64,000 bases of DNA from Candidatus Steffania adelgidicola (GTDB taxonomy: Bacteria; Pseudomonadota; Gammaproteobacteria; Enterobacterales; Enterobacteriaceae), in assembly GCF_020541225.1 (NCBI RefSeq), contig NZ_CP045889.1:930001-994000 (forward strand). Direction: 5' to 3'. Below the pieces are notes generated by a model. It did not search any database, was not told the origin of the DNA, and worked only from the letters and a program-made list of their open reading frames with translations. A program made the translations under genes and the position numbers. Below, in pieces: positions 33,825 to 40,970 of the stretch (the stretch's first letter is position 1; each line of letters begins with the position of its first letter).

Positions 33825-34247
33825 TTAATTGTATTGCTGAATAATTGCTTTCGCCCGAACATCCCGAACCATAGCCTCTAATCGCAAAGCTCGGGAAGGA
33901 GTTAGATGCTCAGTAAGCGCTAGTTTACTAAAAAAAGGCTGCACATCATAGGCAATAATCTCCGCAGGTGTTAAACCTTGATAAAGAATAAATACCATGG
34001 CAATCAGACCTTTAACAATCCCAGCATCACTGTCTCCATATAACTGAACACAACCAGTTTCACTTACGGTCAGGACAATCCACACCCGGCTTTGGCAGCC
34101 TGCGATAAGATGAACTGGGGTACGCATATCTTCCGTCATCAGAGGTAATAAATTACCCAATTCTATAATGTATAAATACTTTTCTTCCCAATTAGCACAG
34201 CGAGAAAAATTGCGCAGAAACTTCTCTTGATCAGGCAGATTTTTCAT
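33825..34247 (-). CDS. sufE: Cysteine-desulfurase sulfur acceptor SufE
   Basis: Accepts persulfide sulfur from SufS and passes it to the SufBCD scaffold. The active cysteine is Cys51 in GCQSRVW, at E. coli numbering when the ATG at 34247 is used; a GTG one codon upstream is possible. Conserved [26 protein letters not shown] and LTPSR blocks. 140 aa against 138. AGGGAGAGA gives the ribosome-binding site. Last gene of sufABCDSE, about 20 bases after sufS. No terminator is obvious downstream. Confidence 0.97.
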
Positions 34248-34268
34248 CACTCTCTCCCTATTAGGCTA

Positions 34269-35495
34269 TCAGCTCAATAAACGATGTACTCGTATTAAAC
34301 CAGCCACCAGCCGATCTATATCCTCCCGATTAGTGTACATCGCAAAAGACGCTCGGCACATACTCGCCACCTGGAAATAAGCTAAGAGCGGCATAGCGCA
34401 ATGATGACCGGTGCGAATCGCGATGCCATATTGATCTAGAAAACTCCCAACATCATAAGCGTGATGTTTCCCTAAATTAAATGCAACAATACCAATACGA
34501 TTCTCTGATCCATATAGCGTCAAGTTAGGCACCTGCCGGAACGCTTCAAGCGTATACTTCATCAGGTTGTTTTCATGGGCCTGAATTCTCTCCAGCCCCA
34601 CCTCTTCAATATAGCTAATAGCAGCACCTAACGCCATCACACCTGCTGAATTAGGAGAACCCGCTTCAAAACGCCACGGTACATCATTGAAGGTTGTACC
34701 GTCTATTAAGCTGACTCTTTGAATCATGGAACCACCACCTTGCCACGGAGGCATAGCTTCTAATAACGCTTGTTTAGCATAAAGAATACCAATACCTGAG
34801 GGGGCATATAGCTTATGCCCCGAAAACACATAAAAGTCGCAGTCTAGCGCCTGTACATCAACATTCTGATGTACTATACCTTGAGCACCATCTATTAAGA
34901 CCACTGCATCACTTAATGCACGAATCTGAATAATAAGGTTTGTTAGCGGATTAAGAGTACCCAGTACATTAGATATCTGAGTCACAGCGAATAGACGAGT
35001 TCGCTCATCAACCAACTCCGGTAATCGGGTTATATCGAGCGTACCGTCTGGTAGCAAAGGAATATAGCGCAACGAGAATTCTTGCTTTTCTGCCAACATT
35101 TGCCAAGGAACGATATTGGCATGATGCTCCATCTCGGTAATCAGAATATTATCACCTGGCCTTAGATTATACCTCCCCCAACTATTAGCTATTAAATTAA
35201 TCCCTTCAGTAGCACCTGTGACAAAAACGATTTCATTCGCTGAAGCTGCATGGATAAAGGACGCCACCTGACTACGTATATCTTCCATGCGAGTGGTAGC
35301 TTCACGGCTTAATGTATAAATACCACGATGAACTGCGGCGTACCCCTGGCGATAATATTCACTCTCGCAATCAATAACAGTGTTGGGTTTTTGCGCGCTT
35401 GCTGCACTGTCGAGATAGGTTAAACCCCGCTGATTCTTGACTTTCTGAGCTAGAATAGGAAAATCAGCTCGAATCCGTGTAATAGGATAGGTCAC
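34269..35495 (-). CDS. sufS: Cysteine desulfurase SufS
   Basis: PLP enzyme releasing sulfur from cysteine for Fe-S assembly. The PLP lysine lies in FSGHKLYAP, and the persulfide cysteine in RTGHHCAMP near residue 366. [12 protein letters not shown] and GHYD-type class V aminotransferase blocks are intact. 408 aa against 406. The start is GTG and overlaps the sufD stop by four bases (GTGA), so translation is coupled. No iscS is in this window; whether this is the only desulfurase in the genome cannot be seen here. Confidence 0.98.
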
Positions 35496-36778
35496 GTCGC
35501 CACCTTTTCTAAACTATCACTGATACATGTTAAAATCGCAGCACTAACCGATTCGTTATCGATTGCTCTAGTCACTTCCGAAGCAAAAGCATAAATAATT
35601 ATTTTTTTTGCATTTTCAAGACTAATACCCCGAGAACGGAGATAGAAAACCTGCTCTTTATCGATGATTCCAACAGTAGTTCCATGACTACATTTTACAT
35701 CATCCGAATAAATTTCTAATTGAGGTTTAGTATCCACTTCTGCAAGACGGTTGAGAATCAGATTATTATTATTCATCTTCGCATCAGTATGTGAGGCATG
35801 CTTTGCCACCTTAATCAAACCATTGAAAACGCCTCTACCACGGTCGCGGGCAATTACTTTATGCAACTGCCGGCTTAAGCAAGAACCCTTGTTGTGCTCA
35901 ACATAAGTTCTAGTATCGCTAATATCTCGCCCCGACGGTAACAACAGGCTGTTAATGACTAAATCAGCCTCTTCACCGTTTAGCTGTGCGCTTATCTGAT
36001 GTCTTGTTAAACCCGGCCCGATAATAAAAGTGCTACTACGCACCACTGCACAACGATTCATCCTGATATCGTTATGGCTGAAATGGTAACTAGCACGACT
36101 TTCAAAGGCTAATTTAATATGGCTTAGCGTCGCGTTATCATTAATTACCATTGAGGTACGTGAACCGCTGAAATGCCCTTCGGAACCCAGGCTAGTAAAA
36201 TGCTCAATAACCTGACCCTGTGCTCCAGCGCCAACATTGATATGGTGGCGGTAATGCAACGTACTCAGCGTTTCTTGATCTTCGCTTCCTTGACTAATAT
36301 GCAGGAGATATAAAGGACGCGGTTCTACCTTTCCCGGTTGTAAATAAATCCGTAAGCGAGCCTGACTTAAGCTTTCGGTTAAATGTAAAAATACCTCCGG
36401 TTGGATAGGGGGAGGCATCAATCGTCTACCACCATTTTCCTCAACTTCGATTTGCCATAGACCGGTATCATTATCGCTAAGGGATGGGGAGAGGTAGCCA
36501 TTGACCAATACCAACCGGTAAGCATTCAGTGTTAAACTCAAGGAGTTTCGATCGCTGACAGATGGCGTACAATTGGTAGCGGGAGTAAAACGGTGTGCTA
36601 GAAACCTATCAAGTGGAGTATATTTCCAATGCTCATGTTGGCACGTAGGTAACCCAAGGCGCTTAACATTCTGCCAGTGCCCACAGGCCTCAACAGAGCG
36701 GGCCATTCCCTGATCAGCAAACAATTGATGCCACTGTGTCAATACACAGGTGTTACTATTGTTCGGTAAGCCAACCAT
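35492..36778 (-). CDS. sufD: Fe-S scaffold subunit SufD
   Basis: Partner of SufB in the SufBC2D scaffold, needed for iron entry. The start GLPNNSN at 36778 matches the E. coli MAGLPNSSN start and overlaps sufC by 23 bases, the same arrangement as in E. coli. A longer in-frame start at 36793 is less likely. 428 aa against 423. The C-terminal beta-helix block [20 protein letters not shown] contains the conserved His associated with scaffold function, followed by FYLRSRGIS. The N-terminal half is more divergent. Confidence 0.97.
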
Positions 36779-37499
36779 AGCCTTGCTCCTCAAGCTGTTT
36801 CACTAAAGAAAAATCACCGGATTTTACAATGCAACCTTTATATAACACATGAATGTAATCAGGTTTGATGTAATCTAAAATACGCTGGTAGTGCGTAACA
36901 ATAATGAAAGAACGTTTTCCATCGCATAATCTATTTACTCCCTGGGATACAACTTTCAGGGCATCGATATCCAAACCAGAATCAGTTTCATCCAAAATGC
37001 ACAAATCCGGCTCCAATACTGCCATTTGCAAAATGTCATTGCGTTTTTTCTCACCACCAGAAAAACCCACGTTAACAGAGCGGGTCAATAGGTCAGGAGG
37101 CATTTTTAGCAATGCAATCTTAGCTTCGATAAAATCAGCGAAATCAAAATGGTCAAGTGACGGCTGTTCGCGATATCTTCGCACGGCATTCAAGGCTGTT
37201 TTCAGAAACAGCTGATTGCTAACACCTGGAATTTCTACTGGATATTGAAACGCCATGAACACCCCTTCCCCTGCTCGCTCCTCTGGTGTCATCGCTAGCA
37301 AATTTCGGCCCTTAAACAAAACATTTCCGGAGGAAATTTGATAATCTTCACGCCCGGCTAGCGTTGCTGACAGGGTGCTTTTTCCGGAACCATTTGGTCC
37401 CATAATAGCATGAATTTCACCAACATTCACTTCTAGGCTAAGACCTTTTAGGATAGCGTTACCTTCTACGCTAACGCTTAGATCTTTAATCGATAACAT
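36756..37499 (-). CDS. sufC: Fe-S assembly ATPase SufC
   Basis: ABC-type ATPase of the SufBC2D scaffold, soluble in the cytoplasm. Walker A GPNGSGKST at residues 35-43, ABC signature GFSGGEKKRNDILQ, Walker B CILDETDSGLD and the switch His in VTHYQR are all intact. 247 aa against 248 in E. coli. It overlaps sufD by 23 bases and follows sufB after about 60 bases. Confidence 0.98.
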   Translation of the reverse strand: MLSIKDLSVSVEGNAILKGLSLEVNVGEIHAIMGPNGSGKSTLSATLAGREDYQISSGNVLFKGRNLLAMTPEERAGEGVFMAFQYPVEIPGVSNQLFLKTALNAVRRYREQPSLDHFDFADFIEAKIALLKMPPDLLTRSVNVGFSGGEKKRNDILQMAVLEPDLCILDETDSGLDIDALKVVSQGVNRLCDGKRSFIIVTHYQRILDYIKPDYIHVLYKGCIVKSGDFSLVKQLEEQGYGWLTEQ

Positions 37500-37561: not shown

Positions 37562-39007
37562 TTAACCTACGGAGTTTTCAAGGCTGATCGACAGCAACTT
37601 TTGTGCTTCTACAGCAAACTCCAACGGTAGTTTAGAGAACACGTCTTTACAGAAACCGTTGACGATCATTGAAATTGCATCATCTTTACTTATGCCACGC
37701 TGACGACAATAAAATAACTGATCGTCACCGATACGCGAGGTAGTGGCTTCATGCTCTAGCTGTGCTGTGTTATTCCGCACTTCCACATAAGGGAACGTGT
37801 GTGCGCCGCATTCACTGCCGATCAGCATCGAATCGCATTGAGTGAAGTTTCGCGCATTAGTAGCGCTCGCCATAATTTTTACCAACCCACGATAAGTATT
37901 ATCGCTCTGGCCAGCTGAAATTCCCTTCGAAATAATAGTCGAGTGGGTATTTTTACCAATATGGATCATCTTAGTGCCGGTATCAGCCTGCTGTTGCCCA
38001 TTAGTCATTGCGACCGAAAAAAATTCCCCTACGGAATTATCACCGCGTAAAATCACACTGGGATACTTCCAGGTAATAGCTGAGCCAATTTCAGATTGAG
38101 TCCAGGACATTTTAGCATTCTCTCCCGCGCATAGAGCGCGCTTGGTAACAAAATTCAGAATCCCTCCTTTTGAGTCACTGCCTGGAAACCAATTTTGTAC
38201 CGTTGAATACTTTACTTTAGCATCTTTCAGCACAATAACTTCTACCACAGCTGCATGTAGCTGATAGCTATCACGTATCGGTGCTGAGCAGCCCTCGATA
38301 TAGCTAACATCGCTTCCTACATCCGCGATAAGCATAGTGCGTTCAAACTGACCAGTTTTAGCAGCGTTGATTCGAAAATAGGTCGATAACTCCATCGGGC
38401 AATGGATATTCTTAGGAATATAAATAAAAGTCCCATCAGAGGCAACGGCCGCATTAAGGGCAGCGAAGAAATTGTCGTTTTCGGGGACTACTTTACCTAA
38501 ATATTGGCGCACCAATGTTGGGTATTTATGAATAGCTTCAATAAAAGAACAGAAAATTATACCCTGTTCTGAAAGTTTATCGCGATAAGTTGTTGAAACA
38601 GATACCGAATCAAAAATTGCATCCACCGCAACATTACTACCTTCGTGTACTGGTATTCCAAGTAAGTTAAACGCCTCTTCCACTTCATCAGTCAAATAAT
38701 TTCTCCCTCCTTGAATCTTGGACTCTTGTTTAGCATTGATCAACGACTTATGGCTGTCATCGCAAACAGGGCAAGATGGAGCAGAATAGTAACTGTAGTT
38801 GTTATACTCGATTGGATGATAATGGGCTTTCAGCCAGTGGGGTTCGTCCATGTCTAACCATGCTCGATAGGCATTTAAACGAAACTCCAACATCCAATCT
38901 GGTTCATCGCGTTTTTCTGAAATAGCGCGCACCACATCTTCATTAATGCCATATGCCAGTTCTTCGGTTACTAGTTGGGTAACAAACCCCTCTTTATAAT
39001 GCTTCAT
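37562..39007 (-). CDS. sufB: Fe-S scaffold subunit SufB, shortened N-terminus
   Basis: Core of the Suf scaffold where the cluster forms. From YKEGF onward it aligns with E. coli SufB to the last residue (SLENSVG), including the key Cys in [10 protein letters not shown] and the beta-helix core. The open frame starts at ATG 39007 and gives 481 aa against 495: the first 16 or so family residues are missing. They are recognisable upstream (39071-39012) in another frame, ending in W-I-K, so a frameshift at an A6 tract (39007-39012) has cut the gene. The cysteine-rich SCxxCDD loop after residue 75 is kept. Essential context suggests the product still works. Confidence 0.93.
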
Positions 39008-39071
39008 TTTTTATCCAGGGTTGACTGAGATCCATCGATTTAGGCGTATCAGTATTACTTAATATCATCAT
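39007..39071 (-). pseudogene. sufB: Out-of-frame N-terminal piece of sufB
   Basis: From ATG 39071 the minus strand reads [21 protein letters not shown] and then a stop, 12 bases past the start of the sufB frame. The spacing of S-NT-D-T and W resembles the E. coli SufB N-terminus (S-R-NT-E-A-T ... W). If the A6 tract at 39007-39012 were A8 or A5, W would join in frame to YKEGF; A8 restores exactly the E. coli spacing of six residues between W and Y. Confidence 0.55.
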
Positions 39072-39081
39072 GTTTCATTGC

Positions 39082-39456
39082 TCAAAGGCTAAAACTTTCA
39101 CCGCACCCGCAGGCGTGCTGAGCTTGAGGATTGTTGAATTTGAACATCTGATTAAGGCCTTCCTGTACATAGTCTACTTCTGTACCATCAATGAAAGGCA
39201 TCGCTTTGAGCGGTATATAAATTCTAGCGTTACCATGCCCATAAACTCGCTCGCTTAACTCAACTTGGATAACCTTTTCAATTATATAGCAAAACCCTGC
39301 ACAACCGGATGGTTTTACGCTAAGTCGCAACCCCAGCATATTGGGATCACTTTTTACCAGGCGAAGAATCTGCCGAGCGGCAGACTCTGTTAGTGTCAAG
39401 CCATGCCATATATTTTCCTCAGGGGAACATATCTTAACCGCATTCTCTACTTGCAT
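39082..39456 (-). CDS. sufA: A-type Fe-S carrier SufA
   Basis: Carries Fe-S clusters from SufBCD to target proteins. The three cluster cysteines are Cys52 in PSGCAGF and Cys116/Cys118 in the C-terminal CGCGESF. Conserved AMPFIDGTEVDYVQEGLNQ block. 124 aa against 122. It opens the suf operon and has an exceptionally strong ribosome-binding site (TAAGGAGGTA). Promoter elements such as OxyR, IscR or Fur sites could not be recognised upstream. Confidence 0.97.
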   Translation of the reverse strand: MQVENAVKICSPEENIWHGLTLTESAARQILRLVKSDPNMLGLRLSVKPSGCAGFCYIIEKVIQVELSERVYGHGNARIYIPLKAMPFIDGTEVDYVQEGLNQMFKFNNPQAQHACGCGESFSL

Positions 39457-39472: not shown

Positions 39473-40970
39473 AAACCTCTGGATCTAAATTTATCAGCAA
39501 ACCTAAAAACATTAATTAAGGCGGTCTTGTCATGTGTTTGAATAGGGGCATTTGATTTATACCATGCTGATTTTTTGATATATCAAAAAAAGTCTTTAAA
39601 TATTAAAACTTTATGCTTGATGATTAAAGAAATCCTTCATAGAAACAAAGTTTCTTACTAGTCGAAACAATAGCTTGTGCCTCAGCTTTCTTGATTAAGT
39701 ATATTTAATATTTTTAAATTCACTTATGGTAAAGATGAATATCTTTCGGTGAATTTGTATCGCAAACAATTGATTTATGTTTAATATCTATGAACTTTAT
39801 AAGTTCAACGCTACATCTTGCAGCAATCTTAAACATTTTCTCCTCTCATGTTGACAAAAAAAATAAATTAGCTACAGATATATTTAGGTATCAGCGTGTA
39901 GTGAAAATCAATAAATAACAACAGTCAGTCATACATCTGATTTTTTTAAAAAAAACTGCTTGCTTTTCAAAGTAAGCAGTTTTGATACGCATCGCTGAAT
40001 TTAATTGATATCATTCACTGATCGCCCATCTATTCTTGACGTCACATAACTAACTAAGCTCTTAAAGCTATATAAACCAGGTGTCCTGTGTCATACAAAA
40101 ATCTTTTTCTTATTGAATCATTTGTATGCGATAATTAACTAAGGGTATATTACTATTTCACAGTATCATCATTATTTATTTTATAATAGGAAACGCTCAC
40201 AAGGCGAATATTAAGCTCAATCATTTACTTTCCTACAACGCATTGCAAAGGTAACAAACATCAATTTAAATAATAACGTTAACCAACCAAGATCGAAGAA
40301 TGGTTTTAAAAAACCCTTTTATCCTGGGTTTTGTAAAGATAAAAGCCGATCGACCTTATCGATGCGTTTCATGAGTTACAAGATACCAACTTAATAAATC
40401 TCATTAAAAGTCTAGATTAGATTCCAAACTTGGAGCATGGGAATTACATTCCGGATTATATAGTCAACCGTCGGTGCCTGGTCTAGTTAATACTAATACA
40501 GCACAAAAGAATATAATCTAGAGCATCATCCTATGATGTGGTATTTCTATAACCAAGCAAAAAAAATACTACTGAAACCAACCGCGCTTTAGCGGCCTGT
40601 AATAATGCTGCCTCTTCGTTAATAGTCCTCGACTATATTCCTGCTTAGCTGCTACTGTAAAAAAAACCAAGCGCCGAAGAATTCCATAACGACATCAGAT
40701 GAAATAATCAGTAAAATACTATTTCTGGCTATTTACATTACATGTGGAACATTAAAGTGATATTCTCAATATATTATTTATATGATATTCACACTTATCT
40801 ATATCAACGATATAATCGGAAATAAAATAGTGGTGCAAGTGGTTATAAAAGGGAGTGTCAGACCAGAAAAAGAAGCGAGCCGCATAATTGTGAATTATAT
40901 CTCATCCGAAAAGAAAAAGCAGAGATCGTCGCAAGTAACATTTTAACGTTGCAGTTGTAAATCCGGGGCG
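39473..40970. other. 1.5-kb non-coding stretch between metK and sufA
   Basis: No gene-like frame. It contains an orphan minus-strand terminator (39952-39983) and a 7-bp stem AAAACCC/GGGTTTT at 40310-40332. The suf promoter should lie here; no clear OxyR/IscR-type operator seen. Confidence 0.6.
39952..39983 (-). terminator. Orphan rho-independent terminator
   Basis: Fifteen-bp stem (one G-T pair), arms 39952-39966 and 39969-39983, core CTGCTT/AAGCAG. On the minus strand it ends in an eight-T run. It is 1 kb beyond the metK stop and 500 bases before sufA, so it most likely ended a gene now lost, or it keeps leftward transcripts out of suf. Confidence 0.65.

What the first reader, a model, noticed from the sequence alone, without database searches (positions are those of the whole stretch)
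38997..39071. sufB has a 5' frameshift at an A6 tract
The sufB frame begins at an internal ATG (39007), 14 residues short of E. coli length. The missing N-terminus is readable just upstream in another frame (S-NT-D-T ... W-I-K), ending past a run of six A (39007-39012). Changing the run to A8 restores the exact family spacing between Trp and YKEGF; A5 also restores frame. In other insect symbionts transcriptional slippage on poly-A tracts is known to rescue such genes. SufB is the scaffold core of the only Fe-S system seen here, so either the short form works or slippage makes full-length protein.
Basis: partly seen in the sequence, partly recalled or inferred. Interest (0 to 1): 0.65.

Follow-up and report, generated by a model that had tools for sequence, protein, structure and literature searches.

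The report
SufB gene with trimmed front end
A one-letter insertion cut a short, loosely conserved tail off an essential iron-sulfur assembly gene in a genome-reduced bacterium, and the gene most likely just starts a little later, as it does in several other shrunken genomes.

Summary
The frameshift is real in the assembly: sufB opens at ATG 39007, and its old N-terminal tail lies just upstream in another frame. The A6 tract is probably not where the frame broke. Against the eight closest relatives (84-85% identity) the best single-base difference is one extra base just after the run (39002-39004), giving W-I-K-N-E-H-Y against W-V-K-S-E-R-Y in most of them. An event inside A6 fits 55-647 times worse.

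In a 21-sequence alignment the lost tail has no invariant residue after Met1. It lies outside SufB model TIGR01980 and gets low confidence in a structure model. Six loci from five other genera (of 48 reduced-genome loci tabulated) start SufB 4-7 residues before YKEGF or YKQGF. The rest of SufB is under strong purifying selection and keeps 8 of 8 known functional residues. No IscU domain was found in the genome.

Most likely short SufB is made from ATG 39007, perhaps by reinitiation after the remnant ORF, whose stop overlaps that start. Slippage rescue is unsupported: six A is shorter than the tracts in the papers I read. An assembly error cannot be excluded without reads. This is ordinary, mildly interesting gene erosion.

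The parts
37562..39007 (-). sufB ORF as it stands, 481 aa, ATG at 39007 (MKHYKEGF...)
   Evidence: NCBIfam NF008773 843.7 bits (cut-off 717) and TIGR01980 632.2 bits (cut-off 346.4)
38994..39068 (-). out-of-frame remnant of the ancestral SufB start and N-terminal tail, [24 protein letters not shown]-stop (an extra ATG at 39071 precedes it)
   Evidence: compared with the intact tails of relatives
39002..39004 (-). best-supported place of the single extra base relative to intact relatives (AAG of ATGAAGCAT)
   Evidence: MAFFT gap against 18 relatives; best of all single-base placements for 8 of 8 relatives tested
39007..39012 (-).
   Evidence: 4.0-6.5 nats worse as indel site than 39002-39004
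39082..39456 (-). sufA, intact, directly upstream
   Evidence: NF007050 183.1 bits (cut-off 161), but TIGR01997 120.6 bits is under its cut-off of 136.2
36756..37499 (-). sufC, intact
   Evidence: NF007134 489.4 bits (cut-off 400)
35492..36793 (-). sufD, intact
   Evidence: NF008194 616.2 bits (cut-off 489)
34269..35495 (-). sufS, intact (GTG start)
   Evidence: NF006791 699.9 bits (cut-off 661)
33825..34250 (-). sufE, intact (GTG start)
   Evidence: NF006792 210 bits (cut-off 160)

Best explanation
One base was gained just after the A6 run in an ancestor of this bacterium. It disconnected the first 20 or so codons of sufB and at the same time brought an ATG that had lain out of frame into frame, three residues before the Tyr of the conserved YKEGF. 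SufB is now made as a 481-residue protein from that ATG (39007) and works as the SufBCD scaffold. The lost tail was a loosely constrained, probably unstructured extension. Shown: the remnant, the homology, the position of the new ATG, purifying selection on the body, conservation of functional residues, an otherwise intact suf operon, and reduced-genome relatives with nearly as short tails. Inferred: that translation starts at 39007 (possibly helped by ribosomes that finish the remnant ORF, whose stop at 38996-38994 lies 11 bases past the new start, and reinitiate), and that the short protein is functional.
For: The sufB body is open over 481 codons. The 8 functional SufB residues named in Yuda 2017 (PMC5571166, passages read) are all present: R226, N228, C254, Q285, W287, K303, C405, E434 in E. 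coli numbering. Pairwise dN/dS of the body was 0.029-0.060 in the 6 of 13 pairs with finite dS (dS saturated in 7), like the pairs between intact genes, 0.012-0.056 in 11 of 12. dN to L003 is 0.084, against 0.082 for the intact reduced-genome gene L138. sufA, C, D, S and E each pass an equivalog cut-off. No IscU domain was found in the genome (PF01592: 0 of 1, while 12 of 14 controls ring). In a 21-sequence alignment the first invariant residue after Met is the Tyr of YKEGF. TIGR01980 starts there: protein residue 3 matches profile position 2. The model of an intact Citrobacter SufB has pLDDT below 50 over residues 1-26. Six loci of five genera with 0.4-1.2 Mb genomes (L009, L027, L163, L147, L154, L155) have no start more than 7 residues before that Tyr.
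Against: The new start has only a middling Shine-Dalgarno match: -3.1 kcal/mol against a median of -3.65 for 22 long ATG ORFs, and 31.5% of random sites are as strong. Nothing in the sequence proves initiation there. The remnant is no more decayed than intact tails of other reduced genomes (11 of 19 residues identical to L003, against 9-12 for L119, L123, L140, L141, L142). This fits a recent event, but also an assembly error or continued translation. Short tails are rare: besides the window, 6 of the 169 distinct loci are intact with such a tail, and those six are all from reduced genomes. The other 42 of 48 reduced-genome loci keep longer tails. In the model of the window protein, pLDDT is also low over residues 79-106 and 112-138, so low confidence is not special to the tail.
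Confidence: 0.68

Rival explanations
1. Assembly or sequencing error: the genome really has an intact sufB with the tail of its relatives and no frameshift.
For: It is a single-base difference beside a homopolymer in an otherwise intact essential gene, and the remnant is as well preserved as intact tails. Cooley and Wright 2024 (PMC11017572, abstract read) find that many putative pseudogenes come from assembly errors.
Against: The best-fitting site is an AAG triplet, not the A6 run, and such short repeats are unlikely homopolymer errors (general knowledge). The genome is one contig rated 99.98% complete, and the other suf genes are intact. Short tails occur in related reduced genomes.
Confidence: 0.17
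2. Frame is restored at expression: transcriptional slippage on the A6 run, or ribosomal frameshifting, makes a share of full-length SufB.
For: An A6 run sits at the junction. Slippage rescue is described for Buchnera and Blochmannia genes in PMC3017870 and PMC5009743 (passages read). The remnant keeps its start codon and much of its sequence. Baranov 2005 allows slippage on shorter runs in some bacteria, and single-base deletions in runs do occur in Buchnera transcripts.
Against: Six A is short: in a large share of the 108 genomes of Baranov 2005 selection against slippage shows at nine (PMC1088944), and the Blochmannia paper counts long tracts as nine or more. Slip rates rise exponentially with run length, insertions prevail in runs, and Traverse and Ochman saw no frame-restoring error (PMC5574713, passages). 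The best indel site is outside the run. Read by eye, the codons ATA AAA AAT GAA GCA TTA TAA show no plus-one shift motif known to me.
Confidence: 0.07
3. Early pseudogene: sufB has just lost its start and function, and decay will follow.
For: G195, in the same genus as the short-tailed G033, has sufB in pieces, and G028 has a broken sufB, so the gene can be lost in relatives.
Against: Strong purifying selection on the body and key residues kept, five other suf genes intact, and no IscU found in the genome to take over.
Confidence: 0.08

Closest known systems
Short-tailed SufB of other reduced Enterobacterales genomes (G033/L009, G021/L027, G189/L163, G119/L147, G155/L154, G109/L155)
   Same: SufB begins 4-7 residues before the conserved Tyr of YKEGF or YKQGF (3 in the window)
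   Different: By eye, no tail remnant could be read in the other frames of L009, L155, L027, L163 or L147; the window still shows it. L154 has an overlapping upstream frame that may be a parallel case.
Slippage-rescued poly(A) frameshift genes of Buchnera and Blochmannia (Tamas 2008, Wernegreen 2010: not held; seen only as cited in the passages)
   Same: Frameshifted but constrained gene in an AT-rich reduced genome
   Different: The run is six A, the indel is best placed outside it, and an in-frame start codon lies at the junction, so no rescue is needed.
E. coli SufB (PDB 5awf chain A)
   Same: Residues 3-481 align with E. coli 20-495 and the 8 functional residues checked are kept
   Different: E. 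coli has 17 more residues at the N-terminus; the window has a 3-residue internal insertion.

Membership tests
SufB Fe-S scaffold (TIGR01980 / NF008773) | Score over the curated cut-off, over essentially the whole model | tested here: met
   NF008773 843.7 bits against 717, profile 17-484 of 484; TIGR01980 632.2 against 346.4, profile 2-448 of 448
SufB Fe-S scaffold (TIGR01980 / NF008773) | Functional residues Cys254, Cys405, Glu434 and five others of E. coli SufB | tested here: met
   8 of 8 identical (residue list from passages of PMC5571166)
SufB Fe-S scaffold (TIGR01980 / NF008773) | Operon with sufA, C, D, S, E | tested here: met
   all five adjacent and each over an equivalog cut-off; sufA passes NF007050 but not TIGR01997
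Slippage-rescued poly(A) frameshift gene | Indel lies in a homopolymer tract | tested here: not met
   A6 event 4.0-6.5 nats worse than 39002-39004 for 8 of 8 relatives; MAFFT gap outside the run. Model-based, not absolute.
Slippage-rescued poly(A) frameshift gene | Long tract (about 8-9 A or more) | tested here: not met
   six A; lengths from passages of PMC1088944 and PMC3017870
Slippage-rescued poly(A) frameshift gene | Mixed mRNA lengths at the tract | not testable with these tools
   needs RNA-seq
Programmed plus-one ribosomal frameshift | Shift-prone codon with slow codon or stop and stimulatory signal | tested here: inconclusive
   codons read by eye only; no prfB-like motif seen (motif recalled)

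The most novel reading that the evidence does not exclude
Reduced genomes lose the SufB N-terminal tail repeatedly and independently, which would mean the tail serves a role needed only in free-living or stress conditions. In this lineage the loss is caught in the act: one insertion both cut the tail off and supplied the new start codon, with the remnant now acting as a translationally coupled leader ORF.
Probability: 0.25. Interest if true: 0.35.

Novelty: new member of a known kind. Interest (0 to 1): 0.2.

Why it matters
It shows how an apparent frameshift in an essential gene can be harmless, and that homopolymer slippage should not be invoked before the indel is placed against relatives. 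It also points to the SufB N-terminal tail as a dispensable part that can be tested directly in E. coli.

Tried and rejected
Slippage on A6: rejected as main explanation because the indel sits better outside the run and the run is short. A8 as the ancestral length: rejected because the eight closest relatives have Trp-Tyr spacing 6. Pseudogene: disfavoured by selection on the body and by the lack of an IscU hit. Shine-Dalgarno analysis: uninformative. dS was saturated in 7 of 13 pairs, so the ratios rest on 6. A second genome of the same genus was sought and none is held. The primary papers for the SufBC2D structure and for symbiont slippage are not held; the passages of the SUF review PMC6006206 say nothing on the tail. 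The structure models used 21 sequences and also have weak stretches elsewhere, so low tail confidence is suggestive only. Literature listings were seen as listings; passages were read in PMC5571166, PMC6006206, PMC3017870, PMC5009743, PMC1088944, PMC5574713 and PMC13345370, and only the abstract (with the section list) of PMC11017572. PMC13383532, listed with one mention each of sufB and frameshift, was not opened.

Rows dropped before the count of short tails: L030/L028 (broken gene of G028), L174 (in-frame TGA codons) and, of the three duplicates, L033 and L052 besides L028. The script printed 3 for L155; the translation shows 5 residues (MEHSQ) before Tyr, so I use 5. The 48 reduced-genome loci (genomes up to 2.4 Mb) were listed by hand and recounted. 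They are not a random sample, because I chose small genomes.

Full report
What is there. The window lies in a 1.37 Mb single-contig genome, and the window is 36% GC. By size, composition and nearest matches it is probably an insect symbiont of the Enterobacterales near Sodalis; that name is recalled and was not tested. The suf operon sufABCDSE lies on the minus strand. sufB is open from ATG 39007 to 37562, 481 aa, and scores over both SufB equivalog cut-offs. Directly upstream, in another frame, lies [24 protein letters not shown]-stop, from 39068 to 38994. Relatives L003 and L004 (85% identity) read MARSNTDTPEAIDATQPWVKSERYKEGF without a break.

Where the frame broke. A MAFFT alignment of the start region with 18 relatives puts the one-base gap after the ATG, in ATGAAGC. 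I also scored every possible single extra base, first against four relatives and then against the eight closest, with substitution frequencies taken from the sufB body. The best placement is 39004 for six relatives and 39002 for two (L115, L117). An event in the A6 run is worse in 8 of 8, by 4.00 nats (L115) to 6.47 nats (L004), that is 55-fold to 647-fold. Under this placement the window reads W-I-K-N-E-H-Y, against W-V-K-S-E-R-Y in most of the eight. Their spacing is Trp+6; A8 would give Trp+7, the spacing seen in Citrobacter (L046).

What the lost tail is. The total length differs from E. coli by 14, but residue 3 here aligns to residue 20 there, so 17 residues are missing at the front. In a 21-sequence alignment nothing between Met1 and the Tyr of YKEGF is invariant. 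NCBI's SufB model TIGR01980 starts at this point. AlphaFold2 gives an intact Citrobacter SufB pLDDT under 50 for residues 1-26. With 21 sequences, and with other weak stretches in both models, this is only suggestive. Of 169 distinct loci whose match reached the N-terminus, the intact ones with no start more than 7 residues before that Tyr are, besides the window, L009, L147, L154, L155, L027 and L163. They come from five genera with genomes of 0.4-1.2 Mb. They are 6 of the 48 reduced-genome loci I listed; the other 42 keep longer tails.

Is the short gene functional? The body shows dN/dS 0.029-0.060 in the 6 of 13 pairs with finite dS, as between intact relatives (0.012-0.056 in 11 of 12). 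Eight of eight functional residues are kept (list from passages of PMC5571166). The other suf genes are intact, each over an equivalog cut-off, though sufA misses the second one, TIGR01997. IscU was not found in the genome, while 12 of 14 control genomes rang. An IscS-like gene is present just outside the window, under the IscS cut-off (600.1 against 643.2 bits). IscS activity may therefore persist, but the scaffold of the ISC system is not seen. Other ISC parts were not searched for.

How it is probably made. The only start in the sufB frame ahead of YKEGF is ATG 39007; a stop lies two codons upstream. Its Shine-Dalgarno match is middling and uninformative. The remnant ORF ends 11 bases past this ATG, so reinitiation by ribosomes leaving the remnant is plausible; this is inference. 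The remnant is as similar to L003 (11 of 19 residues) as the intact tails of L119, L123, L140, L141 and L142 (9-12 of 19). The event is therefore recent, or the tail is always loosely held, or the base is an assembly error.

Slippage. Work read in passages puts clear selection against slippage at nine A or T in a large share of bacterial genomes, with variation and possible slippage on shorter runs in some (PMC1088944). It describes rescue at homopolymer tracts in symbionts (PMC3017870, PMC5009743). Traverse and Ochman report exponential dependence on run length, some single-base deletions in Buchnera runs, and no frame-restoring case (PMC5574713). An A6 run that needs minus one or plus two is a poor candidate. 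Runs of six or more A number 194 in the 64 kb, more than dinucleotide shuffles give (290 overlapping matches against a mean of 176).

Verdict. The frameshift is real in the assembly and its location was probably misread. The most likely reading is a harmless trimming of an expendable tail, with the short protein in use. I searched the paper library for sufB frameshift or start loss in symbionts and saw no report of this case in the listed rows; that covers open-licence papers only, and most listed papers were not opened.

Noticed in passing
L191 1501-2673 (genome 928834-930006, ending at window base 6): An IscS-like gene of 390 aa whose match to the IscS model ends at position 384 of 402, in a genome with no IscU hit. 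The missing C-terminal end is, from memory, the part of IscS that contacts IscU.
   Followed up: partly
L178, L179, L190 (G195): sufB matches fall into six separate pieces with stops in a 0.3 Mb genome of the same genus as G033, which keeps a short-tailed intact sufB.
   Followed up: no
L174-L177 (G308, G235, G369, G126): SufB frames with 3-6 in-frame TGA codons in four 0.3 Mb genomes of one genus: possible TGA-as-Trp code or decay.
   Followed up: no
L154 (G155), start region: sufB start MTFIKIYKEGF overlaps an upstream frame beginning ATG followed by eight A: a possible parallel start-region frameshift with a longer run.
   Followed up: no
L028/L030 (G028): sufB broken in several places in a 5.1 Mb genome rated 49% complete, by eye with a frame change also in the start region: assembly errors or decay.
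   Followed up: no
window 39542-40970: No ORF of 60 aa or more is listed in this 1.4 kb upstream of sufA: probably eroded sequence.
   Followed up: no
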